The translations under genes were made by a program, and so were the position numbers. The notes below the pieces were generated by a model. That model was not told where the DNA came from, did not search any database, and worked only from the letters and a program-made list of their open reading frames with translations. From a virus: a DNA stretch of 40,244 bases. Each line of letters begins with the position of its first letter. The first letter of the stretch is position 1. The stretch lies in the IMG/VR virus record IMGVR_UViG_3300037459_000186, positions 1 to 40,244 of that record, one strand, 5' to 3'. This document shows, one piece after another, positions 6,864 through 19,696 of the stretch.

Positions 6864-6923
6864 AGATCAGGACGGGACTTGAACCCGCAACCCATAGGCT
6901 CCACCAATCGAGCTGCCTGATCT
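6864..6923 (-). tRNA. tRNA-like element lacking the anticodon arm
   Basis: A 60-nt leftward element folds as a tRNA without an anticodon arm. The acceptor-like stem is AGATCAGG/CCTGATCT (8 bp). Next comes a near-canonical D-arm, GCTC-GATTGGTG-GAGC, with the invariant GG. The T-arm is perfect: GCGGG-TTCAAGT-CCCGT, with the T-loop consensus TTCRANN. Between D- and T-arms there are only 9 nt, where a tRNA needs about 23, so there is no 7-nt anticodon loop. No CCA is encoded. It cannot decode in the normal way. It could be a decayed tRNA, an RNase P or RNase Z processing signal, or a tRNA mimic. Similar elements occur elsewhere in this window. Confidence 0.7.
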
Positions 6924-6964
6924 GCCAAAAGAATGCGCCCAGAAACGTATCAATAGAATCTGTC

Positions 6965-7600
6965 ATCTAGAAAGAACGCATTCAATGGGATTAAATACTA
7001 CCGCCCTCCAAAGCGGAACGCTTCATTGGGACACGATCACTTGCGGATCCCGAAGAATTCCTCTCACGCTCACATGCTACCCCTATCCACGCCTTAGTAC
7101 AGGATAGCACTCTTGGAAATGCCGAGTGGAAAATCTTCCGGACTCTTCTCATTTAGTCCGGACACTCTTTCCTGCCTTATAAGCAGTAGTATTTAAAAAG
7201 GTGAGCGGATTAAAAAAAGCAACACAGCGCTGTCTAAATGTATCAAACCCAACAGTGTGCGCTACAATAATCCTCCGCTCAATATCAATATGTAAAGAAC
7301 TTTCGAATTTAAAGGAGGCGATATTTCACCGCCCCCTTAGTTGCTGCCTCGCTGGGACCGTCCAATAACACCATTAGGGGACGTACGATCAATAGACCCT
7401 CTTCTCTGTTTTAGGTGCTCTTTTGGAGCTTCTTATAAAAAAGGCATCCCCCATCACCAATTATTTGAAATCACCCATCTAACCTAAGTTGAGGCGCGGG
7501 GACTGCTCATAATACTAAACCAGCACCGCCGCAAACACAGACCGGGCTATGAAACCGATCCGGTAATTGAATCTCAAAACAACTACTGGCGGTGCTGGTG
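6965..7600 (-). ncRNA. Candidate large structured non-coding RNA
   Basis: About 635 nt without a credible reading frame on either strand, between the PD-(D/E)XK-like gene and the tRNA-like element. It is dense in stems. A 12-bp pair ACCAGCACCGCC/GGCGGTGCTGGT (7519-7530 with 7588-7599) encloses ACCGG/CCGGT (7541-7545 with 7560-7564). AAGGAGGCG/CGCCCCCTT (7312-7338) has its only mismatch become G-U on the leftward RNA. Others are GAGCGGA/TCCGCTC (7203-7209, 7274-7280), TCCGGACT/AGTCCGGA (7137-7162), CTATCC/GGATAG (7083-7107) and AAGCG/CGCTT (7011-7023). Large ornate RNAs such as GOLLD and ROOL occur in phages next to tRNAs; this is a candidate for that class or a new one. I could not compare it with their consensus. 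Orientation is inferred from the wobble and neighbouring genes. Confidence 0.5.
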
Positions 7601-7602
7601 TA

Positions 7603-8586
7603 TTATTGACCTGCCTTGTCGGCAAGCAGTTCGAGTCTCTTGGCCCTTTGGGGACACACGTGAGCTACGGCGCAGTACTTCTCGCATCGCTTGTCCGATC
7701 CTGGGCGGAACTCAATCTCTCCGTTGCCGTCTCTCTTCATAAGGAAAGCTTCTGCTGCTGCCTGAGAATCGAAGATGCCTCCAGGTAACGCTCTCTTGCC
7801 GCCGACCTTCCTGACGGCGAACTTATCAACTTCATTCCATCGGTCCTCAGCCGTGCATGGCGGTACGGACCCCTCGACAGCTTTCTTGTGAAGCGAAACC
7901 CTCTTGGCTATAATATCTTGAGTCACATCGTCAGCATATATCTGCATACCGATAGTCATCAACGGAAACTCCGGATAGTCCTTGTTCCTCTGGCTGCTGG
8001 AGTAGTCTTTAAAGATAGCTATAACTTCAGCCGTATCAACCTCGTAGCCTTCACCTCTCAACAGATGCGCACAGAGATTTACCTCACCCAGCCACTTCTT
8101 TCTATTCTCAGGGTAGATGTATTGATATACTGAACAGACCTTTATGAATTGTAGCTTCTTTTCGCTCTTGATATAACGATCAACTTTACCGTAGACGGTC
8201 CAGTCACCCACTTCTCGTGAGGCAGTATAGCCACGAAGGATGTCATCATTGAGATCGTAGGAGTCCTTGACGTGCTTCAGGAGCCATTCTCCGGCTTTCT
8301 TCCCGTCTTCTGACTTCATGAGCACTGAAGCCGCCGAAAGTAGCTGAGAGGCCTCCAATGAGTTGCTGTCGCCCTGAGCTACTGCGTCGTGGATGGCATT
8401 GTTCATCAGTAGCCACACCCGATCCATTACATCGACCTCGATGTCGTTGTCTCTCCTGAGGATTCTTATCTGCGGGGAGTCCAACAGCTGACCGACGGAG
8501 ATGTCTCCCTCAACCTTAAAATCATTACTGGTGATTGCTTTCTCAATAGCCGACGGAACGCCGTTATTGTTAGTGTACTTTATCAT
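7603..8586 (-). CDS. PD-(D/E)XK superfamily protein with atypical active site
   Basis: A 327-aa protein resembling the Cas4/RecB-type PD-(D/E)XK family carried by many phages. It has the GKVDRY motif (residues 132-137) for the first acidic residue, a YIYPENRKKW segment after the catalytic strand, an IAIFKDYSSSQ strand, and a C-terminal cysteine cluster, CEKYCAVAHVC, as in iron-sulfur forms. The strand that should carry D/E-x-K reads LQFIKVCS, so the acid appears to be phenylalanine, and the following W-x-x-Q-x-x-x-Y helix reads WLGEVNLC with Glu for Gln. It may be inactive or use another residue. The family normally resects DNA ends. Its stop lies 3 nt from the first stem of the candidate RNA. 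Confidence 0.68.
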   Translation of the reverse strand: MIKYTNNNGVPSAIEKAITSNDFKVEGDISVGQLLDSPQIRILRRDNDIEVDVMDRVWLLMNNAIHDAVAQGDSNSLEASQLLSAASVLMKSEDGKKAGEWLLKHVKDSYDLNDDILRGYTASREVGDWTVYGKVDRYIKSEKKLQFIKVCSVYQYIYPENRKKWLGEVNLCAHLLRGEGYEVDTAEVIAIFKDYSSSQRNKDYPEFPLMTIGMQIYADDVTQDIIAKRVSLHKKAVEGSVPPCTAEDRWNEVDKFAVRKVGGKRALPGGIFDSQAAAEAFLMKRDGNGEIEFRPGSDKRCEKYCAVAHVCPQRAKRLELLADKAGQ

Positions 8587-8612
8587 AAGTTCTCTTGCCG
8601 TTATTACGGTTT

Positions 8613-8620
8613 CAAATGTA
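8613..8620 (-). promoter_or_regulatory. Possible -7 box, TACATTTG
   Basis: On the leftward strand TACATTTG fits the Bacteroidota TAnnTTTG box and lies 27 bp before the nuclease-like start. A TTTG at the expected distance upstream is absent, so this is half a promoter. A small CCGT-TATT-ACGG hairpin follows it. Confidence 0.3.
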
Positions 8621-8640
8621 TGCTAAATTGATGAATTTTC

Positions 8641-8823
8641 CTAGGATTTTCTCTTCAGGTATCTCTCAAGATGATTCAATCTCAAAGCTGCCAATCTTGT
8701 GTTTGCGGCATCGTGACCTTCCGCAGCGAAACAAAGATTAAATTCAGCTATTAATGTTTCGTGATAATCGTTCAATGTCGGAATCTCCAGACTTCTGACG
8801 CCTCCTAAAATAGTTTGACTCAT
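8641..8823 (-). CDS. Hypothetical 60-aa helical protein
   Basis: This is a small, mostly helical protein with a leucine- and arginine-rich C-terminus (ALRLNHLERYLKRKS). Its ATG overlaps the stop of the 176-aa gene upstream as ATGA, which supports a real, translationally coupled gene. I see no known motif. The basic C-terminal helix could bind nucleic acid, but that is only a guess from composition. The downstream gene, the nuclease-like protein, starts 55 bp later after a possible promoter. Confidence 0.6.
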   Translation of the reverse strand: MSQTILGGVRSLEIPTLNDYHETLIAEFNLCFAAEGHDAANTRLAALRLNHLERYLKRKS

Positions 8824-9350
8824 GACTTCACAGATTTAAAATTAGTACCCCTACCCTTATTGGTCAGGTAGTCTTTAGAATTGGGAATGTTTTGCACTCC
8901 CATGACCGCTTCGAGGAATATGATGCAGTCATTGATAAACAGCCTCAGACGATCCTTGGTCATCTTGGACTTATCCTCGGTATAGTAGCCGAACGGTTCT
9001 CCATTCTTAGTCATGGGAACTTTGGCGAACATGCGCTTGAACTCACAGTCTACAAGTACAGCATCCACAAACTCATACCCCGCATTCCTGAAGGCTGGTA
9101 TAGCCACCGACATCAGCGGACCAGCATAGAAGGCGTACATGCGCATCTTCTCGCTCTTGAGCACCGCAGGGGAGAGCTTCAGGTCTAAGGCTATAGGAGC
9201 CTTCCATTCACGATCAGCAATGCCCGGATACGCCATCTGCACGATGTAGTCCTGAAAGTCAGGATTGTCCGTCAGTGGTCTCAGCAGACCTATGCTCCAT
9301 TTCTGATGAATGCCGATCTGATTGGGGGTGAATTTGAAGTTGGCTTTCAT
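8820..9350 (-). CDS. Hypothetical 176-aa protein
   Basis: I do not recognise this protein. It reads as a soluble globular domain: an N-terminal strand region (MKANFKFTPNQIGIHQKW), a segment with LSPAVLKSEKMRMYAFY, a middle section FVDAVLVDCEFKRMFAKVPM, and a basic C-terminal tail ending GRGTNFKSVKS. The ATG at 9350 overlaps the stop of the preceding 33-aa membrane peptide as ATGA and is preferred over an in-frame upstream start that would overlap that whole gene. Its position among DNA-processing genes suggests a replication-related role. Confidence 0.7.
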   Translation of the reverse strand: MKANFKFTPNQIGIHQKWSIGLLRPLTDNPDFQDYIVQMAYPGIADREWKAPIALDLKLSPAVLKSEKMRMYAFYAGPLMSVAIPAFRNAGYEFVDAVLVDCEFKRMFAKVPMTKNGEPFGYYTEDKSKMTKDRLRLFINDCIIFLEAVMGVQNIPNSKDYLTNKGRGTNFKSVKS

Positions 9351-9448
9351 TGCTGCTTGTTTCCATGAATGACAATTAAAACAAGTCCTATTATTCCAAT
9401 TGCTGCAAAACTGAAGAAGCAAATTATTATTATCGAATCTTCGCTCAT
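9347..9448 (-). CDS. 33-aa single-pass membrane peptide
   Basis: This very short gene encodes MSEDSIIIICFFSFAAIGII followed by more hydrophobic residues and a polar end, HGNKQQ. Almost the entire peptide is one transmembrane helix (about residues 6-27) with an acidic N-terminus. Both ends are ATGA overlaps, with the 35-aa gene upstream and the 176-aa gene downstream, which is strong evidence that it is translated. Small membrane peptides in phages can act in superinfection exclusion or as small lysis factors; nothing here decides between these. Confidence 0.6.
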   Translation of the reverse strand: MSEDSIIIICFFSFAAIGIIGLVLIVIHGNKQQ

Positions 9449-9552
9449 AATTTCTTAGTTTTTGCTTTGAATTTGAATTTTAAATATTGGATCAGACCAA
9501 CATAAAAATATTGTCCTGTTTCAGGGTCTCGGTATGTTACCATTATCTTCAT
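9445..9552 (-). CDS. 35-aa basic peptide
   Basis: The peptide starts MKIMVTYRDPETGQYFYVGL and ends in a lysine-rich tail (KFKFKAKTKKL). The first part looks like a beta hairpin around DPETGQ. Its stop overlaps the ATG of the membrane peptide (ATGA) and its start lies 5 nt after the stop of the 57-aa gene, so it belongs to the chain of tiny coupled genes at 9.35-9.88 kb. No function is recognisable. Confidence 0.5.
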   Translation of the reverse strand: MKIMVTYRDPETGQYFYVGLIQYLKFKFKAKTKKL

Positions 9553-9557
9553 GTGGC

Positions 9558-9731
9558 TCAGGTGTTTAGCGCAATAGCTTTTACTATGACAGCTTTTAGC
9601 TCTTGCGGTGTGCATTCCAGAACTATGAAATTTTCGCTTTTAGCTCCGGATTTGTACTTCCCGGCAACGTCAATCTCTCTTATCTGAATCCGCACTCTTT
9701 TAGTTTCTAGTTCATTATCTGGTAATCTCAT
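9558..9731 (-). CDS. Hypothetical 57-aa protein
   Basis: This 57-aa frame begins MRLPDNELETKRVRIQIREI, continues with alternating hydrophobic residues (VRIQIREIDVAG, ENFIVLECTP) that suggest a small beta sheet, and ends with a helix (ELKAVIVKAIALNT). It follows the 41-aa gene after 21 nt and precedes the 35-aa gene by 5 nt. It matches no family I know. It is accepted because of its amphipathic pattern and its place in a tightly packed operon. Confidence 0.5.
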   Translation of the reverse strand: MRLPDNELETKRVRIQIREIDVAGKYKSGAKSENFIVLECTPQELKAVIVKAIALNT

Positions 9732-9752
9732 ATTATTATTTTGTTGCTGATT

Positions 9753-9878
9753 TTAAATTCCCCAGTTGAAAGCTTCAACCCATTGACCTTTTCTCTTGCG
9801 AAGGATAATGAGCCTGTTTGACTTAGTTCGACGAAAGTACATTCCGAAGAACTTGAAATTCCATTTACATTCTTCCAT
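9753..9878 (-). CDS. 41-aa aromatic, basic peptide
   Basis: The peptide begins MEECKWNFKFFGMYFRRTKS and ends AFNWGI, with many aromatic and basic residues and two predicted strands. It starts 1 nt after the stop of the 147-aa gene, which supports coupled translation. I see no known motif. It is one of four consecutive tiny genes in this stretch. Confidence 0.5.
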   Translation of the reverse strand: MEECKWNFKFFGMYFRRTKSNRLIILRKRKGQWVEAFNWGI

Positions 9879-9879
9879 A

Positions 9880-10323
9880 TCAATTCAAATAAAATTCACC
9901 CATAAAATCTACTGAATAGATCGGGCTATGATTTTTAACTTCTCCTGTCTTGGGATCGGTGTAATTGGTCAGCGGATGGATTCTTTGAATGGACTGATGC
10001 TCCCATTTAGCCATCCGGGCCCATTCATGATCGAGGTAAAAAGGATGTTTCTTCATCGGCTTCCACAAATACTCTATCCTAGTCGTCTGACTGATGAGAT
10101 AGAAAGCATAGCCGACGATCTCATCAGCCCTTTCAGGATTGCTGAGGCATAATCCTCTTCTCCCGTGGTATACAGGCTCGTAGTATGTCTGCATGTTCAA
10201 TTGAACCAATGCTCTCTGTACTCGCTGCGGATCCATGGTGATGACCATTCCGAACTTGCCGTCTTTCTGAAGCGCGTTCTTCAGGATATGGATGTACTCT
10301 TGATTTCTTCCTGCTCGGCTCAT
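9880..10323 (-). CDS. Hypothetical 147-aa protein
   Basis: I do not recognise the family. The protein begins MSRAGRNQEYIHILKNALQK, has a possible beta section (GKFGMVITMDPQRV), a helical centre with ERADEIVGYAFYLISQ, and a tryptophan- and histidine-rich stretch (HPFYLDHEWARMAKWEHQ). It ends DFMGEFYLN. I chose the ATG at 10323; an upstream TTG at 10329 adds only two residues. It follows the 140-aa gene by 2 nt. It may bind nucleic acid given its basic character, but there is no motif. Confidence 0.65.
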   Translation of the reverse strand: MSRAGRNQEYIHILKNALQKDGKFGMVITMDPQRVQRALVQLNMQTYYEPVYHGRRGLCLSNPERADEIVGYAFYLISQTTRIEYLWKPMKKHPFYLDHEWARMAKWEHQSIQRIHPLTNYTDPKTGEVKNHSPIYSVDFMGEFYLN

Positions 10324-10325
10324 AA

Positions 10326-10748
10326 TCAATCATTTAAATGTCTCACCTCTTCCCTAAGGAAATTGTACAGAATCGATTTCTGCATCAGTGCTTTCATCTT
10401 CCGCTCTCCTGTTACGCTCTCGACCAGGTTATCGGCCAAGCCCTCACCTCTGATTATCCCTTTGATGATCTTGTCGTAGTCGTGGGTTTTTCCAACCCAC
10501 CTGAGAGCCTTCAGTAAATCTTTCTCAGCTTCCTTCCTGACCTGAGTTTTTTCTACATCCTCAAAAGCGAACGAAGTTACGAAGGTCTCGAAGTTCTGCA
10601 GGAACAGATCTCTCTTGGATTTCCTAAAGTAGGAATGAAGCGCATAGCTACTATCAAAAGCTCTCAGGTCGTTGATCCACTTGTCATCCCTAAAACAATG
10701 GAAGGTGAACCCTATCCTGCCCGAGTCGCGTAGATATTCGTTTATCAT
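10326..10748 (-). CDS. Hypothetical 140-aa helical protein
   Basis: This 140-aa protein is rich in helices and basic residues. It begins MINEYLRDSGRIGFTFHCF and includes YFRKSKRDLFLQNFETF, KEAEKDLLKALRW and ERKMKALMQKSILY. The ATG at 10748 overlaps the stop of the 76-aa gene as ATGA and is preferred over an upstream in-frame ATG at 10793. I know no homologous family. Its composition would fit a DNA-binding or structural adaptor of the replication module. Confidence 0.65.
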   Translation of the reverse strand: MINEYLRDSGRIGFTFHCFRDDKWINDLRAFDSSYALHSYFRKSKRDLFLQNFETFVTSFAFEDVEKTQVRKEAEKDLLKALRWVGKTHDYDKIIKGIIRGEGLADNLVESVTGERKMKALMQKSILYNFLREEVRHLND

Positions 10749-10975
10749 CGCGACCCTCCAGCTCCACCCATGTATCCAAGAAGTCCGCCGCAAGCACCAC
10801 CTTTGTTTTGTGCGCTTCCGAACATCGCGCTCTTGGCAAGATTGCTGCTCATTTTCACTCTTTTCCTGATAGCATCAGCTTCGGTGCTGCCGGATTCGAT
10901 TACCAATGTGTGGATTTGCTTCCTGAGTTTTTCGTTCTCAGCTTTGATCTTCTGGTATGAGGATAGTTTTTTCAT
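10745..10975 (-). CDS. 76-aa coiled-coil protein with Gly-rich tail
   Basis: The first 30 residues form a short coiled coil (MKKLSSYQKIKAENEKLRKQ). A polar middle follows, then a glycine- and cysteine-rich tail (GGACGGLLGYMGGAGGSR) that is probably unstructured. ATGA coupling joins it to the 140-aa gene. The coiled coil suggests it oligomerises; nothing more can be said from the sequence. Confidence 0.6.
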   Translation of the reverse strand: MKKLSSYQKIKAENEKLRKQIHTLVIESGSTEADAIRKRVKMSSNLAKSAMFGSAQNKGGACGGLLGYMGGAGGSR

Positions 10976-11009
10976 CGTTTGAAGTTTTGAATTTGACTAA
11001 AAAAATCAT
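10938..11009 (-). CDS. Possible 23-aa leader peptide with strong ribosome site
   Basis: A 23-codon frame (MIFLVKFKTSNDEKTILIPE, then three more residues) starts 9 nt after a GGAGGTG Shine-Dalgarno sequence and overlaps the first 38 bp of the 76-aa coiled-coil gene in another frame. A 7-bp hairpin, TCGTGAT/ATCACGA (11026-11044), stands just before the ribosome site. It may be a leader peptide that couples translation, or chance. Confidence 0.3.
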   Translation of the reverse strand: MIFLVKFKTSNDEKTILIPEDQS

Positions 11010-11025
11010 ATAGGATAACACCTCC

Positions 11026-11044
11026 TCGTGATTCTACATCACGA
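11026..11044 (-). promoter_or_regulatory. Hairpin beside a GGAGGTG ribosome binding site
   Basis: TCGTGAT/ATCACGA is a perfect 7-bp stem with a 5-nt loop, in the 78-bp gap between RNase H and the coiled-coil gene. On the leftward RNA it is followed at once by GGAGGTG. It could modulate ribosome access or stabilise the mRNA end. Confidence 0.4.
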
Positions 11045-11053
11045 CAGAGCATA

Positions 11054-11536
11054 TCAATTATTCTTTGTACACACCACAGCACTACCTGCGGTAGCTGCTG
11101 CGAATGCTAGTTTATCGGCCATCTCGTTAAATCCGTTCCCGGCATGGCCACGTATCCAGTTGACTGTAATCTTTGAGCCTTTGTGCTTTTGAAGATTGAG
11201 AGCTTTGACCAGCCGTCTCCACAGATCGGGATTGGCTTTCTCATCCAGCGTCCCGCTCCTGATCCAGTTCTTCACCCACTTGTTAGTCCCGTCAGTGACA
11301 TAAGTCGAGTCGCAGTAGATATCGATCATGTAGCCGGGCTTGACGTGCTCCAAAGCGAAGATAACGCCTTTGAGATCCATCCTCTGCGATGTCGTGTCGG
11401 TGTAGCACTTGCTCTTGAATTTCTTCAGTCTGCCATCCATGCTCATCACTACGCCGTAGCCGCCCACCTTGCCGTGCTCCCGAGAGAATGATCCGTCGGT
11501 GTATATCTGTATGGGGATTTGGGATTTTAGAGTCAT
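11054..11536 (-). CDS. rnhA: Ribonuclease HI
   Basis: A 160-aa type 1 RNase H, which cuts the RNA strand of RNA-DNA hybrids, for example to remove primers. The family motifs are in order: YTDGSFS (first Asp), TTSQRMDLKG (second acid), YCDSTYV (third Asp), and WIRGHAGNGFNEMADKLA (His and fourth Asp). Length is normal for the family. The second acidic position, usually Glu in N-R-M-E, is Asp here, a conservative change that may alter activity. It sits in the leftward replication operon, 4 nt downstream of the 141-aa gene. Confidence 0.92.
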   Translation of the reverse strand: MTLKSQIPIQIYTDGSFSREHGKVGGYGVVMSMDGRLKKFKSKCYTDTTSQRMDLKGVIFALEHVKPGYMIDIYCDSTYVTDGTNKWVKNWIRSGTLDEKANPDLWRRLVKALNLQKHKGSKITVNWIRGHAGNGFNEMADKLAFAAATAGSAVVCTKNN

Positions 11537-11540
11537 AGAA

Positions 11541-11966
11541 TCACCTCATTTTAGTAATATCATTCATGAAGTCCGTCGCTCCGATCATCAGTTCTTTGGC
11601 AATTGCTTCGGAAATAAGTTTGAATACTGCTCTTACAATAGAGTCATTACCGAAGCGTCCGTTCAGGGCGTGCTTATGCTCCCAATCATATTTACTCGCA
11701 ATCTCTTCCAGTTTGTACTCCTTGCCGTTCAGAGTGAAGCTAATCAGGAAGACCAGCTTATTCTCCATTGCGTCCTGATAGAACACGATAGCTTTTGCTT
11801 TCAGGTAATTTTCCTCAACAACAATCCTCGCAAGGATGTTCTCCGAAGCCTTCTGTTCCATCTCGTTGAGAAGTTCGACGCTCTTGTCTGTGACCGCTCT
11901 GTTCTCTGTAACCGTAACAACGTGGTTATGGTCGTGCTTTTCGGTACCGTGATATTCTCCGGGCAT
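11541..11966 (-). CDS. Hypothetical 141-aa protein
   Basis: An unrecognised protein with a histidine-rich start (MPGEYHGTEKHDHNHVVTV), an acidic helix around ELLNEMEQKASENIL, a strand-rich centre (KLVFLISFTLNGKEYKLEEI), and a C-terminal helix with two hydrophobic stretches (AVFKLISEAIAKELM). It lies 4 nt upstream of RNase H and 11 nt downstream of the 227-aa gene, so it is part of one transcript. The N-terminal histidines could bind metal, but no known motif is formed. Confidence 0.65.
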   Translation of the reverse strand: MPGEYHGTEKHDHNHVVTVTENRAVTDKSVELLNEMEQKASENILARIVVEENYLKAKAIVFYQDAMENKLVFLISFTLNGKEYKLEEIASKYDWEHKHALNGRFGNDSIVRAVFKLISEAIAKELMIGATDFMNDITKMR

Positions 11967-11977
11967 AATGTTTGTTT

Positions 11978-12661: not shown

Positions 12662-12664
12662 AGC

Positions 12665-14219: not shown

Positions 14220-14237
14220 CTTCTAGTGGGTTGAGGG

Positions 14238-14429: not shown

Positions 14430-14444
14430 AATATTCTTTCTTTT

Positions 14445-14472
14445 CTCCTACCCTACTAGAGAGGAGGAGGGT
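14445..14472 (-). promoter_or_regulatory. Hairpin that could mask a ribosome binding site
   Basis: On the leftward RNA, ACCCT/AGGGT (14472-14468 with 14454-14450) forms a stem whose loop carries CCTCCTC. An alternative stem pairs that CTCCT with AGGAG (14449-14445), the ribosome site of the 63-aa gene. Two exclusive foldings would give an on/off leader. Confidence 0.35.
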
Positions 14473-14681
14473 TATTTTACAAGTTCGTTTAATGCGTCGA
14501 GCGTGTCTGAAATTTCTTCAGTGGTAAATGTCCAACATTCGTTATATGATTGCGGATCTGTGTGCCCCGGAATTATCTGCGACTCACTTTTAAGCGTGCT
14601 AAGCATCAGCAATATATACTGCTTCAACTGTGGAATTGTTCGTGTCCCGTCTTCGTGATCTTCAATTATTTGGTTTGCCAT
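14472..14681 (-). CDS. Hypothetical 69-aa protein
   Basis: This 69-aa protein has an acidic start (MANQIIEDHEDGTRTIPQL), a leucine-rich helix (KQYILLMLSTLKSE) and a C-terminal helix (TEEISDTLDALNELVK). No family is recognised. It starts 30 nt after the end of a tRNA-like stem structure (14711-14755) that separates it from the third XRE regulator. It has no clear Shine-Dalgarno sequence, unlike most genes in the next 4.5 kb. Confidence 0.55.
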   Translation of the reverse strand: MANQIIEDHEDGTRTIPQLKQYILLMLSTLKSESQIIPGHTDPQSYNECWTFTTEEISDTLDALNELVK

Positions 14682-14710
14682 TGTCTTTAAGTATAAGATT
14701 GTTTAAAACA

Positions 14711-14755
14711 AAGGCTACCAGCCCTCCTATGAAGGGATAGAGTGCCGGTAGCCTT
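14711..14755 (-). ncRNA. Intergenic acceptor-plus-T-arm-like RNA element
   Basis: A 45-nt element in the gap between two genes. AAGGCTACC/GGTAGCCTT is a perfect 9-bp closing stem. Inside it, near the 3' side, CCCT-TCATAGG-AGGG forms an arm with a 7-nt loop, in the position and size of a T-arm, separated from the closing stem by 2 nt. A single-stranded 10-nt link replaces the D- and anticodon arms. The loop is not a TTCRA consensus. It is grouped with the other mini tRNA-like elements by architecture only. A terminator is the alternative; TGTTTTAAAC follows the stem. Confidence 0.4.
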
Positions 14756-14779
14756 GTCCGTTCCTTGGAGGAAACGTCT

Positions 14780-15205
14780 TTAATCCTGTTTTGCTTCGAG
14801 TATTGCAATGGTTTTCTTCTGGGCCTCAGCCAATTCTTTTAAAATCTGAAGTTGATATTTTAAGCCTTCCAGTTCCGCTTGCCAATTATATCCTGCCGTC
14901 GATCCTAAGAGTCCAGATTTTGCACCATAACCAGCAGGTCTAGCCGTGGATAGTGTCACATCTGCATTATGACCAATAACAAAACCTTTTTCCTTGAAGT
15001 GCACAATATCAAACTCACCGCACTGGAAAATCTTCGCAATCTTCACTAGTTTCTCCCATGTCACTTTGGTTGCTCCGCGTTCCAGTTTTCCGTAGGAGCT
15101 CTGAGAGACTTTCATCTCCTCCGCCATGAATTCCTGCGAAATGTTTTTCAGTATCCGCATTGTACGGATGTTGTCATAAATCTGCTTGCTTTCCTTCTCT
15201 GGCAT
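14780..15205 (-). CDS. XRE regulator with C-terminal coiled coil
   Basis: A 141-aa regulator. The helix-turn-helix is MAEEMKVSQSSYGKLERGAT (residues 27-46), preceded by the usual IRTMRILKNISQEF helix. After a glycine- and serine-rich linker (about 90-108) it ends in a coiled coil (LKYQLQILKELAEAQKKTIA), probably for oligomerisation. This layout is frequent for regulators of Bacteroidota and their phages. It opens the regulator end of the leftward accessory cassette. Its own start lacks a Shine-Dalgarno sequence. Confidence 0.85.
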   Translation of the reverse strand: MPEKESKQIYDNIRTMRILKNISQEFMAEEMKVSQSSYGKLERGATKVTWEKLVKIAKIFQCGEFDIVHFKEKGFVIGHNADVTLSTARPAGYGAKSGLLGSTAGYNWQAELEGLKYQLQILKELAEAQKKTIAILEAKQD

Positions 15206-15226
15206 AATATTGTTGTTAGTACTGGG

Positions 15227-15772
15227 TTACACTACTTTGAATCCGCTGTAATTCAAAACCTCCTCCGCATCCATAGCGGACAATTTCTTGCAGAGATCGA
15301 TTACTTCCTGGCTGGATGTTGTTGAAAGGATGTTGTTTGGAAAATCTTCACACAGTCCCAACCAAACATGGTAGGTCATTTCTTTGTATTCATCCGAAAG
15401 ATTCGGATCACAAATATCAACACACAATACCACGTCCTCGCCAAAATCTTTGAATATCGCATCGACCTTTATGTCTGTAGCACTTTCAGTTGTTGAAAAC
15501 TCAAGCCCAAACAAAGCCATTAGAAGCCTCTGAACAGGTAAAGGTGACCGTGAGGTGTAGATTGAGATGAAAAGGTCTGTAGCGTCCTGCTTTTTGCTTG
15601 CAAGGACTTTCTTCGTGCCTGTGTTCAATGAAAATATGTGAGCGCTGATACAAGAGTAGTTTTCTTTGTATTCCGGATGCTCCATTCCGGGGTTACTAAT
15701 TTTGTTGACAGCAATTGTTATTCCTGCTGCTGCTTTGTCTGTTATCCAGTATAAATTTTCTAGTTGTGACAT
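15227..15772 (-). CDS. Hypothetical 181-aa protein
   Basis: An unrecognised acidic protein. It has an N-terminal alpha/beta look (GITIAVNKIS, CISAHIFSLNTGTKKVL), a middle with PLPVQRLLMALFGLEF, a strand EDVVLCVDICDPN, and a helical C-terminus (SSQEVIDLCKKLSAMDAEEV). A GGAGGA ribosome site lies about 9 nt before the ATG, a feature of this cassette and rare in the rest of the window. It is followed 21 nt later by the XRE regulator. Confidence 0.65.
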   Translation of the reverse strand: MSQLENLYWITDKAAAGITIAVNKISNPGMEHPEYKENYSCISAHIFSLNTGTKKVLASKKQDATDLFISIYTSRSPLPVQRLLMALFGLEFSTTESATDIKVDAIFKDFGEDVVLCVDICDPNLSDEYKEMTYHVWLGLCEDFPNNILSTTSSQEVIDLCKKLSAMDAEEVLNYSGFKVV

Positions 15773-15811
15773 TTGTTGTTTCCTCCAATTAAAGGGTTTG
15801 TAATTACTCGG

Positions 15812-16129
15812 TTAAAAAGGTAAATCATCATCCGCTACAGGTTCATATACAGCAGGTGCTTTTTGTGTTTTACTTCGCCAATTCTGAACAGAGGCACTCA
15901 TTTGTGGCGCTACATTGGGCGGATCGTGAGTAATGACAACCTTGAACTTTAGTGGCCCCTCTATAATCCAGTTTTCCCAATCTCGTTCAGTTTTATGTCT
16001 CGGCTCACGCCTGTACTCTTTACTAATTTTCCGCAACCACTTCTGAGACTTAAGATCTCCCGTGATATTGCTATTGAACTTTTCCTTCTCGATGAGCCTG
16101 TCACCGAGATATACTTTGATAATAATCAT
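15812..16129 (-). CDS. Unknown protein with SSB-like acidic C-terminal tail
   Basis: A 105-aa protein with a strand-rich N-terminus (MIIIKVYLGDRLIEKEKF), a basic middle (SKEYRREPRHKTERDWENW), and a low-complexity linker. It ends EPVADDDLPF, nearly the DDDIPF tip with which bacterial single-stranded DNA-binding proteins recruit partners. The body is shorter than the usual OB-fold SSB and I cannot confirm an OB fold. It may be a divergent SSB or a mimic of the SSB tail that diverts host repair proteins. I chose the ATG at 16129 because a GGAGGA site precedes it by 7 nt; the longer frame from 16183 reads into the leader. Confidence 0.6.
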   Translation of the reverse strand: MIIIKVYLGDRLIEKEKFNSNITGDLKSQKWLRKISKEYRREPRHKTERDWENWIIEGPLKFKVVITHDPPNVAPQMSASVQNWRSKTQKAPAVYEPVADDDLPF

Positions 16130-16190
16130 TTCAATGTCCTCCAAGACGTTTAAAATTGTTAATAACTCCCTGCACATTCCCATGCAGTGG
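16130..16190 (-). promoter_or_regulatory. Conserved structured leader, SSB-tail gene
   Basis: The leader carries CACTGCATGGGA, a CTGCA/TGCAG hairpin (16170-16187), the block TAACAATTTTAA and a GGAGGA ribosome site, in that order. The same blocks occur before the genes starting at 16521, 17881 and, in part, 18828. Confidence 0.5.
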
Positions 16191-16197
16191 CAACAGT

Positions 16198-16521
16198 CTA
16201 CTCTTCATCGCCTTGGTGAGTGGTCATAACTGATCCGGGAGGCTTGAAGTTTCTATCGTAGAATTCATCTGCGCTCATTTCATTAGCCGCATTTTCCTTT
16301 CGGGGCGCGGGCTTGAAAACACTATCGCAAAGGTTTTTATCCACCTCAACAGGATTGTGCACATATCGATAGTGACTTTTGTCAATATCAGAGTGCCTCA
16401 TGATTTGATCGTCGTCAAGCCCTTCGGTGTCGGTATCTATCACCACTAGTTGAATTTCTGAGTCAGTGAGTACGTGGGAAACAATTCCCTTCTCGATAAA
16501 CACTATTACTTTGGTTGGCAT
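16198..16521 (-). CDS. Hypothetical 107-aa acidic protein
   Basis: The first 60 residues have a regular strand pattern (MPTKVIVFIEKGIVSHVL, then IQLVVIDTDTEGLDDD), consistent with a small alpha/beta or ubiquitin-like fold. The C-terminal half is polar and likely disordered (FKPAPRKENAANEMSADEFY). A short phrase, VIVFIEKGIVSHVLTDSE, recalls small phage and conjugative proteins of unknown role. It has a GGAGGA ribosome site and a conserved leader that overlaps the end of the upstream membrane protein gene. Confidence 0.62.
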   Translation of the reverse strand: MPTKVIVFIEKGIVSHVLTDSEIQLVVIDTDTEGLDDDQIMRHSDIDKSHYRYVHNPVEVDKNLCDSVFKPAPRKENAANEMSADEFYDRNFKPPGSVMTTHQGDEE

Positions 16522-16586
16522 AATGAATTCCTCCTTTGTTAAAATTGATTAATATCCTTGTGAGCACTCCCATGCAGTGCTAAGTG
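16522..16586 (-). promoter_or_regulatory. Conserved structured leader, 107-aa gene
   Basis: The leader shows the same order of blocks as the one at 16130-16190: CACTGCATGGGA, a GCACT/AGTGC hairpin (16564-16580), ATTAATCAATTTTAA and GGAGGA. Its 5' half lies inside the last codons of the upstream 108-aa gene, so the RNA element constrains that protein's C-terminus. Confidence 0.45.
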
Positions 16587-16875
16587 GTGTAACAAACCCC
16601 GTATCAGGCCCCTGGACTTCGAGGTAGTAGATTGAATCTCCTCCGAAGCGTTCCCCCTCGTAGTTTTTGTCGAGGTAGATGGTTGAGGTGAATGGTGGTG
16701 TAGGTTTTTCGCTTTCAAGATGTCCGGTCAGGAGCGAAACAATCAAGCTTACTACCAACACACCGCTAAACACCAAAGACCAACCAAATTTACGTAGTGC
16801 GCTATTGCTGTTGAGTTGGGCCTGATCAAGCGCTTGTTTCATTTTGTTCATTAATGTGATCTCTCGATTATCCAT
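16549..16875 (-). CDS. 108-aa single-pass membrane protein
   Basis: The protein has an N-terminal polar helix (MDNREITLMNKMKQALDQ), one clear transmembrane segment (SLVFSGVLVVSLIVSLL, about residues 33-49) and a 58-residue polar C-terminal domain containing PPFTSTIYLDKNYEG. There is no signal peptidase site, so a membrane-anchored protein with one exposed domain is likely; orientation is uncertain. Its last codons carry part of an RNA leader shared with a neighbouring gene. Two structured elements lie just upstream of the start. Function unknown. Confidence 0.65.
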   Translation of the reverse strand: MDNREITLMNKMKQALDQAQLNSNSALRKFGWSLVFSGVLVVSLIVSLLTGHLESEKPTPPFTSTIYLDKNYEGERFGGDSIYYLEVQGPDTGFVTPLSTAWECSQGY

Positions 16876-16907
16876 AATATTTCAGTTTGAATTGTTGAGT
16901 AAAAGAA

Positions 16908-16976
16908 AGAACCACCAGCGCTATTCATAATCACTAACCTTTGCCTCGTTTGGGATGAGGCTACGCTGATGGTTCT
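16908..16976 (-). ncRNA. Intergenic cloverleaf-like hairpin element
   Basis: AGAACCACCAGCG (16908-16920) and CGCTGATGGTTCT (16964-16976) form a 13-bp stem whose single mismatch becomes G-U only on the leftward RNA. Inside, next to the 5' side of the leftward RNA, GCCTC/GAGGC makes an arm with a 9-nt loop, and 22 nt are left unpaired. On the RNA the stem is followed by TTTCTTTT, so an intrinsic terminator or attenuator is a good alternative to a processed RNA. Confidence 0.45.
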
Positions 16977-16983
16977 ATTTTGT

Positions 16984-17030
16984 TTCCCTCCCAGCCCTCA
17001 ACCGTAGTACGCCTGGGCTTTGGAGGGGAA
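16984..17030 (-). terminator. Nested hairpin after the 85-aa gene
   Basis: CCCTCC/GGAGGG encloses AGCCC/GGGCT with a 17-nt loop, 3 nt after the stop of the 17033-17290 gene. On the leftward RNA the stem is followed by AAACAAAATAG rather than U, so it may protect the 3' end or act as a processing site instead of terminating. The outer stem contains both a CCUCC and a GGAGG, and so could also sequester a ribosome site. Confidence 0.4.
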
Positions 17031-17032
17031 TG

Positions 17033-17290
17033 TTATCTAATTCTTTTTGTTCCGGTATACATGAATGTCTTTTCATCTTGAGGTAAGTTGCAATAGATTC
17101 TAGTAACTCCGCTGGTGTATGATGTTGCTAAACTATTCGCCCCGTACATGTTTTGCTTCTGTATAGGCAAGTAAGCCACAGGGTATTGCTTGTTTCGTTG
17201 CTCAAGAACAATTTCAACAAGGTCTTCAGGATCACGATCTTTAAGCGCGTCCATAAGCTCTCTTACGGTGCAGTTTTCACTATTTGCCAT
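17033..17290 (-). CDS. 85-aa protein with TVRELMDAL domain
   Basis: The N-terminal half reads TVRELMDALKDRDPEDLVEI, a helix followed by a strand, a pattern (T-V-x-E-L-x-x-x-L-x-x-x-x-P-x-x-x-V) found in many small phage proteins of unknown role. The C-terminal part has strands around VAYLPIQKQNMYG and VTRIYCNLPQ. The start is preceded by GGAGGA, placed in the last codons of the 195-aa gene, which ends 3 nt earlier, so the two are translationally linked. Confidence 0.65.
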   Translation of the reverse strand: MANSENCTVRELMDALKDRDPEDLVEIVLEQRNKQYPVAYLPIQKQNMYGANSLATSYTSGVTRIYCNLPQDEKTFMYTGTKRIR

Positions 17291-17293
17291 GAT

Positions 17294-17881
17294 TCAGTCC
17301 TCCTTTTGTTGTGGTAAATTACTTAGGTTATGCGGCACAAAGTCTTGTCCGTACTCGAAAGTATACCCAAGCTCTTTGACTTTCTCCAGCAAAACTTCAG
17401 TGTCTGAGACCTCAGCTACGGCTCTCTCGTGCTTGTCCATCCACTGTTTCAACAAGTCCTGGAGTTCCGGGGGCCATTGTGAGTCGTTAAACTGTATAGC
17501 GTCTTCAATATCGATCAATTTCTCCGCTGTTACCTTGTCCTCAACAATTTCAGAGAGGAGTTCAAGGATTATATCTTCGTTGTAAACAAATTCAATTGCC
17601 GTTAGTAAAGGGCTAGGATAGCGCTCCCTTTCCTCCTCTGACAGATAGGCACAGTCATTGTCCAGGAACTCAACCCAGTGATCAATTAGCTCCATCTCCG
17701 TTGTTGTCTTCGTCAGTGTGATGTCGTGACCATCAACTTCAACCCGCAGGTCAATCTTATAATGACCATACCCAGCGAACTTCTTGCCGACACCCCAAAA
17801 CTTAATATCGTTATCAAATAAAACTAAATTGTTGAGGTCGCTATCTTGAACGCCTTTGATGTAATTATGAACATTTTTCAT
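17294..17881 (-). CDS. Hypothetical 195-aa acidic protein
   Basis: A strongly acidic protein of unknown family. It begins MKNVHNYIKGVQDSDLNNLV, has a strand-rich section (YKIDLRVEVDGHDITL), then helices with many Glu and Asp residues (HWVEFLDNDCAYLSEEERER, LELLSEIVEDKVTAEKL). Such acidic early phage proteins sometimes mimic DNA, but nothing specific supports that here. The ATG at 17881 follows a GGAGGA site and a conserved structured leader; the longer frame from 17971 translates the leader. Confidence 0.65.
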   Translation of the reverse strand: MKNVHNYIKGVQDSDLNNLVLFDNDIKFWGVGKKFAGYGHYKIDLRVEVDGHDITLTKTTTEMELIDHWVEFLDNDCAYLSEEERERYPSPLLTAIEFVYNEDIILELLSEIVEDKVTAEKLIDIEDAIQFNDSQWPPELQDLLKQWMDKHERAVAEVSDTEVLLEKVKELGYTFEYGQDFVPHNLSNLPQQKED

Positions 17882-17930
17882 TGTTATTTCCTCCAAAATT
17901 GTTTCCCTGCAAGAATACCCTACAGAGTGG
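17882..17930 (-). promoter_or_regulatory. Conserved structured leader, 195-aa gene
   Basis: This is a third example of the leader: CACTCTGTAGGGTATT, a short CTGT/GCAG hairpin (17907-17925), CAGGGAAACAATTTT and GGAGGA. It aligns with the leader at 16130-16190 over CACT, GGG-AT, TGCAGGGA and AACAATTTT, with differences in spacing. Confidence 0.45.
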
Positions 17931-17937
17931 TGATGAG

Positions 17938-18519
17938 TTATGCGGGCACTGCAATTTGAATTTCTTCCCAATCGAATTCGTGCATTGAATCTGCTTCGAG
18001 GTGAATTGAGTTTTCGTTGATCATATCAATTGCTTCCTGCTCTGCTTCGTCAACGTGGTGCTGTATGATCCAATCGTTGTTGGCAAACAGGCTAGCGATA
18101 TAAAACACTCTTAGTGAGGGGTTGTATCCTTTTTCGCAAATGAACGCCTTAACGATCGTTCCTCGCTTCTCTAACACGTCATTCATCACCGTACTTGCGT
18201 AACTCATGTTAGGACAGCTGAGGTCTTCGTGTACATCGTCTTCGTCAACTTCAACCTGAAGAACTACTAATGTTTGTTCGCCTACTCCCTGTATTGCTGC
18301 ACATATTTGGGCAGAGTCAAAAGCATAGCGTAAGGCTGAGCCTAGTACCCATTCCTCCTCATCTTCTTCATCGTGCTCGCCTTCTCGAATCTTTTCCAAG
18401 TCCCAGAAATATGTCTCCTCGTAGCTTGAACAGTTCCAGTTTTCATTTTCAGGACTGAAACCCTCCTCAAGTATTTTCAAATAGTTGGCATGCGTTGTGC
18501 CGTGAAATAAAGTTGCCAT
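17938..18519 (-). CDS. Predicted ADP-ribosyltransferase-fold protein
   Basis: A 193-aa protein that starts MATLFHGTTHANYLKILEEG. The F-H-G-T motif followed by an x-x-x-x-x-I-L-x-x-G-F helix is the NAD-binding start of ADP-ribosyltransferases of the H-Y-E type. Further on, GSALRYAFDSAQICAAI resembles the helix after the second motif, and TLVVLQVEVDEDDVHEDLSC a core strand pair. The final Glu of the triad is not certain. It may modify a host protein or nucleic acid, or be a catalytically altered relative. It begins after a GGAGGA site at 18519. An acidic insert (EGEHDEEDEEEW) is unusual. Phage ADP-ribosyltransferases such as T4 Alt and ModB reprogram the host early; whether this one does is inference. 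Confidence 0.6.
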   Translation of the reverse strand: MATLFHGTTHANYLKILEEGFSPENENWNCSSYEETYFWDLEKIREGEHDEEDEEEWVLGSALRYAFDSAQICAAIQGVGEQTLVVLQVEVDEDDVHEDLSCPNMSYASTVMNDVLEKRGTIVKAFICEKGYNPSLRVFYIASLFANNDWIIQHHVDEAEQEAIDMINENSIHLEADSMHEFDWEEIQIAVPA

Positions 18520-18570
18520 TTTGTTGTCCTCCAAATAGATAATAGGTTAATACTAATTTGTTTTGCACTA

Positions 18571-18828
18571 TCACCACGTCCTCATGTGACGCGGCATTAA
18601 AAGTCTCCAATCAAGAGTAAGACACTGATTGTTCCCAACTAGCCCCGCTTTGCGCTCTCTTAATCGTGCTAGTACATCTTTAGCGCTTCGGTTGTAGTTG
18701 GCGCCACCATGAGTCATAAAGTCTCCATACACGCCTATAATTGTGTAATCGCTGTTGTTAGAGTGAGGGCAAAATGTAATCTCTAAATCACCATCAATTA
18801 TAACAATTCTGTTTTCTCGGTTATTCAT
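18571..18828 (-). CDS. Hypothetical 85-aa protein
   Basis: The protein begins MNNRENRIVIIDGDLEITFC, a likely beta hairpin, continues with SDYTIIGVYGDFMTHGGAN and a basic helix (SAKDVLARLRERKAGLV), and ends LLMPRHMRTW. No family is recognised. A GGAGGA site precedes the ATG at 18828; the frame open to 18885 would run through the tRNA-like element. The gene follows that element directly, like the 54-aa and 108-aa genes elsewhere. Confidence 0.62.
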   Translation of the reverse strand: MNNRENRIVIIDGDLEITFCPHSNNSDYTIIGVYGDFMTHGGANYNRSAKDVLARLRERKAGLVGNNQCLTLDWRLLMPRHMRTW

Positions 18829-18854
18829 TTTATTCCTCCATTTAAAATTGTTTG

Positions 18855-18906
18855 CACTGCACAAGGGAGTTGAACCCCTGCGCACAGCCTTGAACTGATT
18901 GCAGTG
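18855..18906 (-). tRNA. Mini tRNA-like element lacking the anticodon arm
   Basis: A 52-nt leftward element. The acceptor-like stem is CACTGCA/TGCAGTG (7 bp). The T-arm is complete, AGGGG-TTCAACT-CCCTT, with a TTCRANN loop and one G-U pair that closes only on the leftward RNA. A 3-bp arm, CAG-TTCAAGG-CTG, stands where the D-arm would be. There is no anticodon arm and no CCA. It lies 2 nt after the stop of the 124-aa gene and is followed by AACAATTTTAAATGGAGGA and the start of the 85-aa gene, so it occupies a leader. Its first bases (CACTGCA) match the opening of the two other leaders at 16.2 and 16.6 kb. Confidence 0.65.
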
Positions 18907-18908
18907 TG

Positions 18909-19283
18909 TTAATTTCCTTTCGAGACGTCTTGAAGTTCAATGTCGTCTCTGTAATCTTGCACAGGGGACGACAGAACACCCGAAGCCCACATCATTTGCT
19001 GCTCAATACTTTTGAGTTCGTCGCCTTTCATGCCCGGAAAGCAGTTGAAAGTTTTAGTTGTGCTATCAACAAATGTCAGTTCCAGAACAGGAGTAGCCCA
19101 ATTTGAACCCTGAATCCCTCCAATTGTTGTTTCACTGGTCAGCTCTCTTGAATATTTCTCTGCCTTTGTCCAAACCGTATCAGCTGTCCAGAACCAATCT
19201 TCGTGCATGCCTAATGCAGCACTGTCAAGGTCTTTACTCGAATCTATAATTTGCTTTGCTAGTCTAAAATCGTAGTTAGCCAT
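18909..19283 (-). CDS. Hypothetical 124-aa protein
   Basis: The protein begins MANYDFRLAKQIIDSSKDLD, has a tryptophan-rich segment (HEDWFWTADTVWTKAEKY), a strand pair (WATPVLELTFVDSTTKTFNC) and a C-terminal helix (ELKSIEQQMMWASGVL). I know no family for it. I chose the ATG at 19283, preceded by an AAAGGAA site; an upstream in-frame ATG at 19298 adds five residues. It is the second gene after the leftward promoter region. Confidence 0.65.
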   Translation of the reverse strand: MANYDFRLAKQIIDSSKDLDSAALGMHEDWFWTADTVWTKAEKYSRELTSETTIGGIQGSNWATPVLELTFVDSTTKTFNCFPGMKGDELKSIEQQMMWASGVLSSPVQDYRDDIELQDVSKGN

Positions 19284-19339
19284 AATAATTCCTTTCAAAT
19301 AATAGTTGTTGTTAATACTCAGTAAGTAACAGATAATAA

Positions 19340-19504
19340 TTACGAGACTACACCACAGGCGCTAAGAACGATTGTAATGCCCAATATGATGCCTAGCACT
19401 ATTATTGCATAGTTATCCTCTCTGGGGGTCCGCAAACGCGCTCTATCGTCATTGTGCTGACGTTCTAATACTTCTGTCTGTACTGTCTTTGATAAATTTG
19501 TCAT
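19340..19504 (-). CDS. 54-aa single-pass membrane protein
   Basis: This short gene encodes an N-terminal soluble part of about 31 charged residues (MTNLSKTVQTEVLERQHNDD and a basic stretch) and one transmembrane helix, NYAIIVLGIILGITIVLSAC, ending GVVS. The hydrophobic helix runs to within four residues of the end, as in tail-anchored proteins. It starts 29 nt after a tRNA-like element. A role in superinfection exclusion, membrane signalling or lysis is possible; the sequence does not decide. No Shine-Dalgarno site is visible. Confidence 0.6.
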   Translation of the reverse strand: MTNLSKTVQTEVLERQHNDDRARLRTPREDNYAIIVLGIILGITIVLSACGVVS

Positions 19505-19533
19505 AGTTTCTAGTTGTTTTGAGATTAGTTAGC

Positions 19534-19581
19534 ACCTTGCTGCGGCCTCGAACCGCACTATCACCCATACGTATGCAAGAT
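19534..19581 (-). tRNA. Mini tRNA-like element, acceptor and T-arm only
   Basis: A 48-nt leftward element: a 7-bp acceptor-like stem, ATCTTGC/GCAAGGT with one G-U, joined directly to a perfect T-arm TGCGG-TTCGAGG-CCGCA (5 bp, TTCRANN loop). The 17 nt between the 5' strand and the T-arm can form at most a 3-bp D-like arm, and no anticodon arm exists. Acceptor stem stacked on T-arm is the minimal RNase P substrate. It lies in the leader of the 54-aa membrane protein gene. Confidence 0.65.
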
Positions 19582-19608
19582 GTGTAGGGCCTTTAACCCT
19601 CGAATCAT
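19561..19608 (-). CDS. Possible 15-aa leader peptide
   Basis: ATG at 19608 after GAAAGGAAACAAATT starts the 15-aa frame MIRGLKALHILHTYG, whose stop lies inside the tRNA-like element at 19534-19581. A ribosome translating it would open that structure. It may be a regulatory leader peptide, or a chance frame. Confidence 0.25.
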   Translation of the reverse strand: MIRGLKALHILHTYG

Positions 19609-19642
19609 AATTTGTTTCCTTTCTTCATTCGTGAAATTTCAG

Positions 19643-19696
19643 CACTTTGCCGACCCTGCGAGAGTCTAGCGGATACTCATTGCATCCAACAAAGCG
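19643..19696 (-). ncRNA. Mini tRNA-like element with diverged T-loop
   Basis: A 54-nt leftward element with the same plan as its neighbours: acceptor-like CGCTTTG/CAAAGTG (7 bp, one G-U), 2 nt, a D-like arm GGAT-GCAATGAGT-ATCC, 4 nt, a T-like arm GACT-CTCGCAG-GGTC with a 7-nt loop, 2 nt, and the acceptor 3' strand. Both wobbles (acceptor G-U and T-stem U-G) close only on the leftward RNA. The loop CTCGCAG differs from the TTCRA consensus. No anticodon arm. Confidence 0.45.

What the first reader, a model, noticed from the sequence alone, without database searches (positions are those of the whole stretch)
6864..19696. A set of mini tRNA-like elements without anticodon arms, placed in gene leaders
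Seen: three leftward elements (6864-6923, 18855-18906, 19534-19581) pair a 7-8 bp acceptor-like stem with a perfect T-arm carrying a TTCRANN loop, but are only 48-60 nt long and have no room for an anticodon arm. Two more (14711-14755, 19643-19696) share the plan with changed loops. All but perhaps the 19643 one lie just before a gene, and several have G-U pairs that close only on the leftward RNA. Known: RNase P accepts an acceptor stem stacked on a T-arm as a minimal substrate. Inference: the elements may be punctuation signals where host RNase P or RNase Z cuts the polycistronic phage message, or stable tRNA mimics. I know of no described phage system of this type.
Basis: partly seen in the sequence, partly recalled or inferred. 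Interest (0 to 1): 0.88.

Follow-up and report, generated by a model that had tools for sequence, protein, structure and literature searches.

The report
Phage tRNAs without an anticodon arm
This phage carries shrunken tRNA look-alikes that cannot read codons; many unrelated phages keep similar ones, sometimes exactly at the ends of giant phage RNAs, which suggests that they mark places where the host's tRNA-processing enzymes cut phage transcripts.

Summary
Three of the five elements (6864-6922, 18855-18906, 19534-19581, minus strand) pair an acceptor stem with a perfect T-arm and have no anticodon arm; this motif appears about 0.008 times per shuffled window. 14711-14755 is better read as a terminator; 19643-19696 is undecided. 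The first element also keeps the D-arm and belongs to a phage class not described in the papers I could search. I found about 80 examples in viral contigs, most with an 8-10-nt linker, a covarying Watson-Crick 26-44 pair replacing the anticodon arm (35/41, against 7/85 in ordinary tRNAs of the same loci) and a kept 15-48 pair. In several families the element is 91-100% identical while its flanks are near the random baseline. A relative of the window's phage has a tRNA-like element at the same place, with an expanded anticodon arm. Elsewhere an anticodon-less tRNA abuts the 3' end of GOLLD RNA, and at ROOL 3' ends full and anticodon-less tRNAs interchange. Best reading: tRNA-shaped punctuation, cut by host RNase P and partners, possibly leaving a stable small RNA. 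Cleavage is inferred, not shown. The two smaller window elements are statistically real but were not found in the relative.

The parts
6864..6922 (-). Element 1: anticodon-less tRNA. Acceptor GATCAGG/CCTGATC, D-arm GCTC-GATTGGTG-GAGC, linker C26-TAT-G44-GGTT (no anticodon arm), T-arm GCGGG-TTCAAGT-CCCGT
   Evidence: Rfam tRNA 31.7 bits without anticodon arm; independent model R3 53.6 bits, E 1.7e-17; a tRNA-like element at the same place in a relative
18855..18906 (-). Element 2: mini element, 7-bp acceptor plus 6-bp T-arm (loop TTCAACT), 19-nt bridge containing GG, no clear D-arm
   Evidence: strict motif scan, 0.008 hits per shuffled window; 14.9 bits, E 0.013 with R3; starts 2 nt after TAA, ends 26 nt before ATG 18828
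19534..19581 (-). Element 3: mini element, 7-8-bp acceptor plus 5-bp T-arm (loop TTCGAGG), 17-nt bridge containing GGG
   Evidence: strict motif scan; weak with the covariance model (8.6 bits, E 0.7); about 29 nt before ATG 19504
19643..19696 (-). Possible degenerate relative: three-way junction without TTC loop; undecided
   Evidence: fold z -2.7
14711..14755 (-). Not part of the set: hairpin plus T-rich tail, best read as an intrinsic terminator
   Evidence: z -4.2
6967..7602 (-). Long intergenic region just upstream of element 1, strongly structured as RNA; possible unnamed large noncoding RNA
   Evidence: fold z -5.0 over 636 nt, 20 shuffles; no Rfam match
7603..8586 (-). Exonuclease gene (phrog_2139), left syntenic marker
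5074..6405 (-). SbcC-like/AAA ATPase gene (phrog_1499), right syntenic marker
6424..6750 (-). Small ORF downstream of element 1 (ATG 6750; in-frame ATG at 6819)
18909..19298 (-). ORF whose stop codon precedes element 2 by 2 nt
18571..18828 (-). ORF downstream of element 2, with GGAGG ribosome-binding site
19340..19504 (-). Small ORF (54 aa) downstream of element 3
   Evidence: read

Best explanation
The elements are tRNA-shaped processing marks. They keep what host RNase P (and probably RNase Z and the CCA enzyme) reads in a tRNA: acceptor stem stacked on the T-arm and, in element 1, the D/T elbow and core. The part needed only for decoding is gone. The long phage transcript is cut at the acceptor 5' end, which makes a 3' end for the upstream RNA, and probably at the acceptor 3' end, which frees a downstream leader; the roughly 58-60-nt piece may persist as a stable small RNA. 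Shown here: structure, covariation, conservation in spite of diverged flanks, widespread occurrence in phages, and exact placement at GOLLD and ROOL 3' ends elsewhere. Inferred: cleavage, the enzyme, and any function of the released piece.
For: Pattern scans of viral contigs gave 88 unique elements with a near-perfect acceptor and full T-stem and a linker peak at 8-10 nt (46 of 88; an ordinary tRNA has 22-23), plus a second group at 15-18 nt, several with shrunken hairpin arms; about 18 more came from a further pattern. Among unselected hits with linker 8-13, 53 of 62 have at least 6/7 acceptor pairs in fixed register. Pairs covary. In linker classes 8-9 the 26-44 pair is Watson-Crick in 35/41, with no excess at neighbouring offsets; 15-48 is Watson-Crick in 57/60; ordinary tRNAs of the same loci have 26-44 Watson-Crick in 7/85. 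Families with flanks near the random baseline have elements mostly 91-100% identical, in one family differing only in the linker. Window synteny: a relative with 57% identical terminase has a cloverleaf-like element with an expanded anticodon arm between the same two genes. GOLLD ends 3 nt before an anticodon-less tRNA in L104; ROOL 3' ends overlap a full tRNA (L346, L348) or an anticodon-less tRNA (L020/L347) by 7-10 nt. E. coli RNase P cleaves acceptor/T-arm model hairpins (PMC11143913). Element 2 fills almost the whole gap between a stop codon and the next ribosome-binding site.
Against: No RNA ends or cleavage data exist. Punctuation alone would not need the D-arm and tertiary core that element 1 keeps, which argues for a folded product with a role of its own. 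Elements 2 and 3 were not found in the relative. Most members encode no CCA, and many do not start with G. Only 2 of 50 records searched carry GOLLD or ROOL, and upstream RNA structure is only modestly enriched (16/47 with z <= -2 upstream against 9/46 downstream).
Confidence: 0.58

Rival explanations
1. Stable anticodon-less tRNA mimic: the released RNA is the product, acting as bait or competitor for proteins that bind the acceptor/elbow half of tRNA (for example host defence tRNases that cut anticodons), and resisting them because the cut site is missing.
For: The whole tRNA core is kept (U8-A14, 15-48, G18G19, the 26-44 cap), more than RNase P needs. Some elements stand alone before a terminator (L104, L169). 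A few encode CCA (Vibrio K476).
Against: No target is identified; acceptor sequences share nothing; elements 2 and 3 lack the core; the placements at ROOL/GOLLD ends are explained better by processing.
Confidence: 0.25
2. Decaying tRNA pseudogenes that lost the anticodon arm by deletion and have no function.
For: Vibrio K476's element is tRNA-Arg(cct) of its relative D504 minus the anticodon arm.
Against: Linker lengths cluster; the 26-44 pair was re-made as a covarying Watson-Crick pair; elements stay conserved while flanks reach the random baseline.
Confidence: 0.07
3. Phage attachment sites copied from host tRNA genes.
For: Tyrosine integrases often use tRNA 3' ends (general knowledge; PMC9897764).
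Against: Both acceptor strands are intact, there can be several elements per phage, and in the host genomes of two elements the other tRNAs share only short conserved stretches (about 21 nt or less), not the acceptor 3' half.
Confidence: 0.03
4. Mimic of the tRNA-like domain of tmRNA that titrates SmpB, AlaRS or EF-Tu.
For: The tmRNA tRNA-like domain also lacks an anticodon arm.
Against: The alanine identity pair G3-U70 is present in only 4 of 42 and 5 of 31.
Confidence: 0.03

Closest known systems
Transfer RNA (Rfam RF00005)
   Same: 7-bp acceptor, U8/A9, D-arm with G18G19, TTCRA T-arm, 15-48 pair; the anticodon-less elements score above Rfam's tRNA threshold
   Different: No anticodon arm; Watson-Crick 26-44 pair with a 2-3-nt turn instead; most lack encoded CCA; cannot decode
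tRNA punctuation of polycistronic transcripts (animal mitochondria)
   Same: tRNA shapes between genes define RNA ends (from general knowledge)
   Different: Here the mark need not be a decoding tRNA: the anticodon arm is absent, and the setting is phage
GOLLD (RF02032) and ROOL (RF03087) ornate phage RNAs, reported near tRNA islands (PMC12286853)
   Same: In L104 and L020/L347 anticodon-less tRNAs sit exactly at their 3' ends
   Different: The window's structured region matches neither family; the one paper on them I could read does not mention anticodon-less tRNAs in the passages shown
Acceptor/T-arm model substrates of RNase P (PMC11143913) and natural non-tRNA substrates (PMC4919913)
   Same: Elements 2 and 3 have the same plan: acceptor stem on a T-arm
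   Different: Natural, in phage leaders; cleavage not tested
Pseudo-tRNA tRNA-Other of Bacillus cereus (PMC3399842)
   Same: tRNA-like RNA outside translation
   Different: It has a Trp anticodon
Truncated tRNAs of animal mitochondria (PMC7609411)
   Same: tRNAs with missing arms
   Different: They lose D- or T-arms and keep the anticodon: the opposite deletion

Membership tests
tRNA | acceptor stem, D-arm and T-arm with conserved loop letters | tested here: met
   element 1 and the class; elements 2 and 3 lack a proper D-arm
tRNA | anticodon stem-loop with 7-nt loop | tested here: not met
   linker of 9 nt in element 1; ARAGORN calls no tRNA
tRNA | aminoacylation and use in decoding | not testable with these tools
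   no anticodon; charging unknown
Anticodon-less phage tRNA class defined here | linker 8-10 nt, Watson-Crick 26-44, 15-48 pair kept (element 1) | tested here: met
   element 1: C26-G44, A15-U48, linker 9; independent model 53.6 bits
Anticodon-less phage tRNA class defined here | same features in elements 2 and 3 | tested here: not met
   no clear D-stem, 17-19-nt bridge; only acceptor, T-arm and a GG in the bridge are shared
RNase P substrate | cleavage at the acceptor 5' end by RNase P | not testable with these tools
   shape is suitable; no cleavage data
tmRNA or tmRNA mimic | G3-U70 alanine identity and tag reading frame | tested here: not met
   G3-U70 in 4/42 and 5/31; no tmRNA called
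GOLLD / ROOL | match to RF02032 or RF03087 upstream of the element in the window | tested here: not met
   region is structured (z -5.0) but unmatched
tRNA attachment site (attP) | identity with the 3' half of a host tRNA | tested here: not met
   two host genomes; not testable for the window, whose host is unknown
Intrinsic terminator (14711-14755) | GC-rich hairpin followed by a T run | tested here: met

The most novel reading that the evidence does not exclude
Phages have repeatedly evolved a dedicated class of anticodon-less tRNAs, with a Watson-Crick 26-44 cap in place of the decoding arm, as portable processing ends for phage transcripts, including giant ornate RNAs such as ROOL, GOLLD and possibly an unnamed one in this window; the cut-out RNA may in addition act as an uncleavable bait against host tRNA-targeting defences.
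Probability: 0.3. Interest if true: 0.93.

Novelty: new variant of a known kind. Interest (0 to 1): 0.84.

Why it matters
tRNA genes are recognised by their anticodon, so tRNAs without one are skipped or filed as 'undetermined', as happened in isolated Polaribacter phages. If they are processing ends, they give a concrete hint of how the 3' ends of the ROOL and GOLLD cage RNAs are made, and a DNA sign for finding further large phage RNAs. If the released RNA has a function, phages have turned the oldest adaptor RNA into something unrelated to decoding. Both ideas can be tested in isolated phages and in Lactobacillus prophages.

Tried and rejected
Close relatives of the window by single-sequence search: none; terminase and portal have no tblastn hit in INPHARED. 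phi80 M3 RNA, recalled as an RNase P substrate: it is an oop-like hairpin, not tRNA-like. Attachment sites and tmRNA mimicry: disfavoured. Random pseudogenes: disfavoured for the class, although K476/D504 is one deletion case. L004/L034/L038/L040 and L015/L016/L018/L027 matched the first pattern but have another plan and were left out. Of the 28 bacterial-genome hits only L042, L047, L054 and L066 are clean; the others are N-masked tRNAs, tandem arrays or mismatched acceptors. A plasmid search gave nothing convincing from its table. Model R2 (sequence only) was built and not used. Larger ROOL and GOLLD searches in Lactobacillaceae failed technically; a smaller genus search worked.
Full report
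What is in the window. The window is a 40,244-base viral record of a phage without close relatives in INPHARED: no DNA match for 23 kb, no tblastn match for terminase or portal. A strict motif, a 7-bp acceptor stem directly abutting a 5-6-bp T-arm with G53, TTCRANN and C61, occurs three times, always on the minus strand: 6865-6922, 18855-18906 and 19534-19581. 1200 dinucleotide shuffles gave 10 hits in all. The motif was defined after seeing the elements and the 6-bp T-stem was allowed for the second, so the exact odds are soft, but three in one window is far from chance. The fifth (19643-19696) folds well as a three-way junction but lacks the T-loop letters; I leave it open.

Element 1 is an anticodon-less tRNA. 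It matches Rfam's tRNA model over its whole length with only the anticodon arm missing. It has a D-arm with the GG of the D-loop, and between D- and T-arm only nine bases, C-TAT-G-GGTT.

A class in other phages. A pattern with a D-arm too close to a T-arm (4-20 nt apart) hit 39 stretches of viral contigs and 28 stretches of the 257-billion-base genome collection; of the latter only four are clean anticodon-less elements, and three of these are the same sequences as viral-contig records. Two wider patterns and a filter on pairing left 88 unique viral elements. Their linker lengths peak at 8-10 nt (46 of 88), with a second group at 15-18 nt, in several of which the anticodon arm is a small hairpin. 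The acceptor was not part of the patterns, yet among unselected hits with linkers of 8-13 nt, 53 of 62 have at least six of seven acceptor pairs in fixed register. Acceptor and T-stem pairs covary strongly, with the caveat that alignment rows were chosen for good pairing.

How the missing arm is closed. In elements with 8-9-nt linkers the linker reads N26, a turn of 2-3 nt, N44, then 45-48 as in tRNA. N26 and N44 form a Watson-Crick pair in 35 of 41 (C-G, T-A, G-C, A-T), above shuffles and unlike neighbouring offsets; 15-48 is Watson-Crick in 57 of 60. In 85 ordinary tRNAs of the same loci 26-44 is Watson-Crick in only 7, and C at position 26 does not appear, in line with the literature, which noncanonical (PMC4919913). 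So these are re-capped, not merely cut. Element 1 has C26-G44, A15-U48 and C8-G14.

Conservation. In three families whose flanks are mostly near the random baseline (about 0.5 identity) the elements are mostly 91-100% identical; in one, only the linker differs, in length 8, 9, 13 and 14. This speaks for selection on the RNA, although spread of the element as a cassette could also contribute. Isolated phages have it too: Polaribacter phage Danklef (annotated tRNA-OTHER, NNN; 78.6 bits with model R3, whose training set it was in) and Vibrio phages of the K476 type. K476's element is its relative's tRNA-Arg minus the anticodon arm, which shows how such elements can arise.

The window's relatives. 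Two contigs encode the phrog_1499 protein at 43-46% identity; one (G048) shares terminase (57%), portal, helicase and gene order. Between the same two genes that flank element 1, G048 has a cloverleaf-like element with acceptor, D- and T-arm but an expanded anticodon arm; ARAGORN does not call it a tRNA, Rfam does at 50.5 bits. The other relative has a different structured RNA there. Elements 2 and 3 were not found in G048, so their conservation is untested.

The smaller elements. Acceptor plus T-arm elements of 43-46 nt with a GG-bearing bridge recur in phages that also carry anticodon-less or short-armed tRNAs: L126, L020, L077, and in ROOL-bearing Lactobacillus loci L346 and L348. They resemble elements 2 and 3. 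In the window, element 2 fills the gap between a stop codon and the next ribosome-binding site.

The link to giant RNAs. Rfam finds GOLLD in L104 ending 3 nt before an anticodon-less tRNA that is followed by a terminator-like hairpin, and ROOL in L020 whose 3' end overlaps the first 10 nt of an anticodon-less tRNA. In four ROOL loci of the same genus, ROOL is followed by a full tRNA (L346, L348), an anticodon-less tRNA (L347, the same phage as L020) and, by eye, a tRNA-like element with an enlarged middle (L349). In L347 a full tRNA also ends 2 nt before ROOL. Full and anticodon-less tRNAs thus appear interchangeable at the ROOL 3' end, where decoding is unlikely to matter. The simplest reading is that RNase P, cutting at the tRNA 5' end, makes the ROOL 3' end. 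In the window, 636 nt upstream of element 1 fold far better than shuffles (z -5.0) and match no Rfam family, so element 1 may cap an unnamed large RNA; this is a guess. Across the class upstream structure is only modestly enriched and ROOL or GOLLD is rare.

Mechanism and rivals. Shown: structure, covariation, conservation, distribution, placement. Inferred: recognition and cutting by RNase P (known to accept acceptor/T-arm substrates, PMC11143913) and perhaps RNase Z, and release of a small RNA. The kept tertiary core argues that the product itself may matter; a bait for tRNA-binding or tRNA-cutting proteins is the main rival. Attachment sites, tmRNA mimicry and pseudogenes are disfavoured.

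Limits. No expression data; the host of the window's phage is unknown; patterns favoured one D-arm type; E-values of home-made models are rough; the literature search covered open-access papers only.

Noticed in passing
window 6967-7602, minus strand: 636-nt intergenic region with strong predicted RNA structure (z -5.0), including a long closing stem around 7196/7000; no Rfam match.
   Followed up: partly
L047 3800-4030, minus strand: Right after the anticodon-less tRNA lies a tRNA-Ile-like sequence with a roughly 50-nt hairpin inserted in its D-loop.
   Followed up: no
L020 6700-8720, minus strand (Lactobacillus xujianguonis phage): tRNAs, ROOL and at least four mini or anticodon-less tRNA-like elements within about 2 kb.
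   Followed up: partly
L035 186-256, minus strand: tRNA-like with encoded CCA whose anticodon arm is a 6-bp hairpin with a 3-nt loop (AGCCAC-TGA-GTGGCT), next to an anticodon-less tRNA.
   Followed up: no
L077 and L116: ARAGORN reports tRNAs with 2- or 4-letter anticodons in phages that also carry short-armed or anticodon-less elements.
   Followed up: no
linker group 15-18 nt, e.g. L085, L097, L122, L143, L153: A second class of phage tRNA-like elements with the anticodon arm shrunk to a small hairpin (CTAG-GAAA-CTAG in L085).
   Followed up: partly
L098, L079, L117, L119: T7-like phages with the anticodon-less tRNA between scaffold and major capsid genes, right after the capsid gene, or next to the scaffold gene.
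   Followed up: partly
L136, L163, L213 (Danklef): Intrinsic-terminator-like hairpins lie directly upstream of the anticodon-less tRNA, leaving little room for a promoter.
   Followed up: no
L263 3264-3356: In the second relative of the window the same intergenic place holds another structured RNA (z -2.9) closed by an 8-bp stem, not tRNA-like.
   Followed up: no
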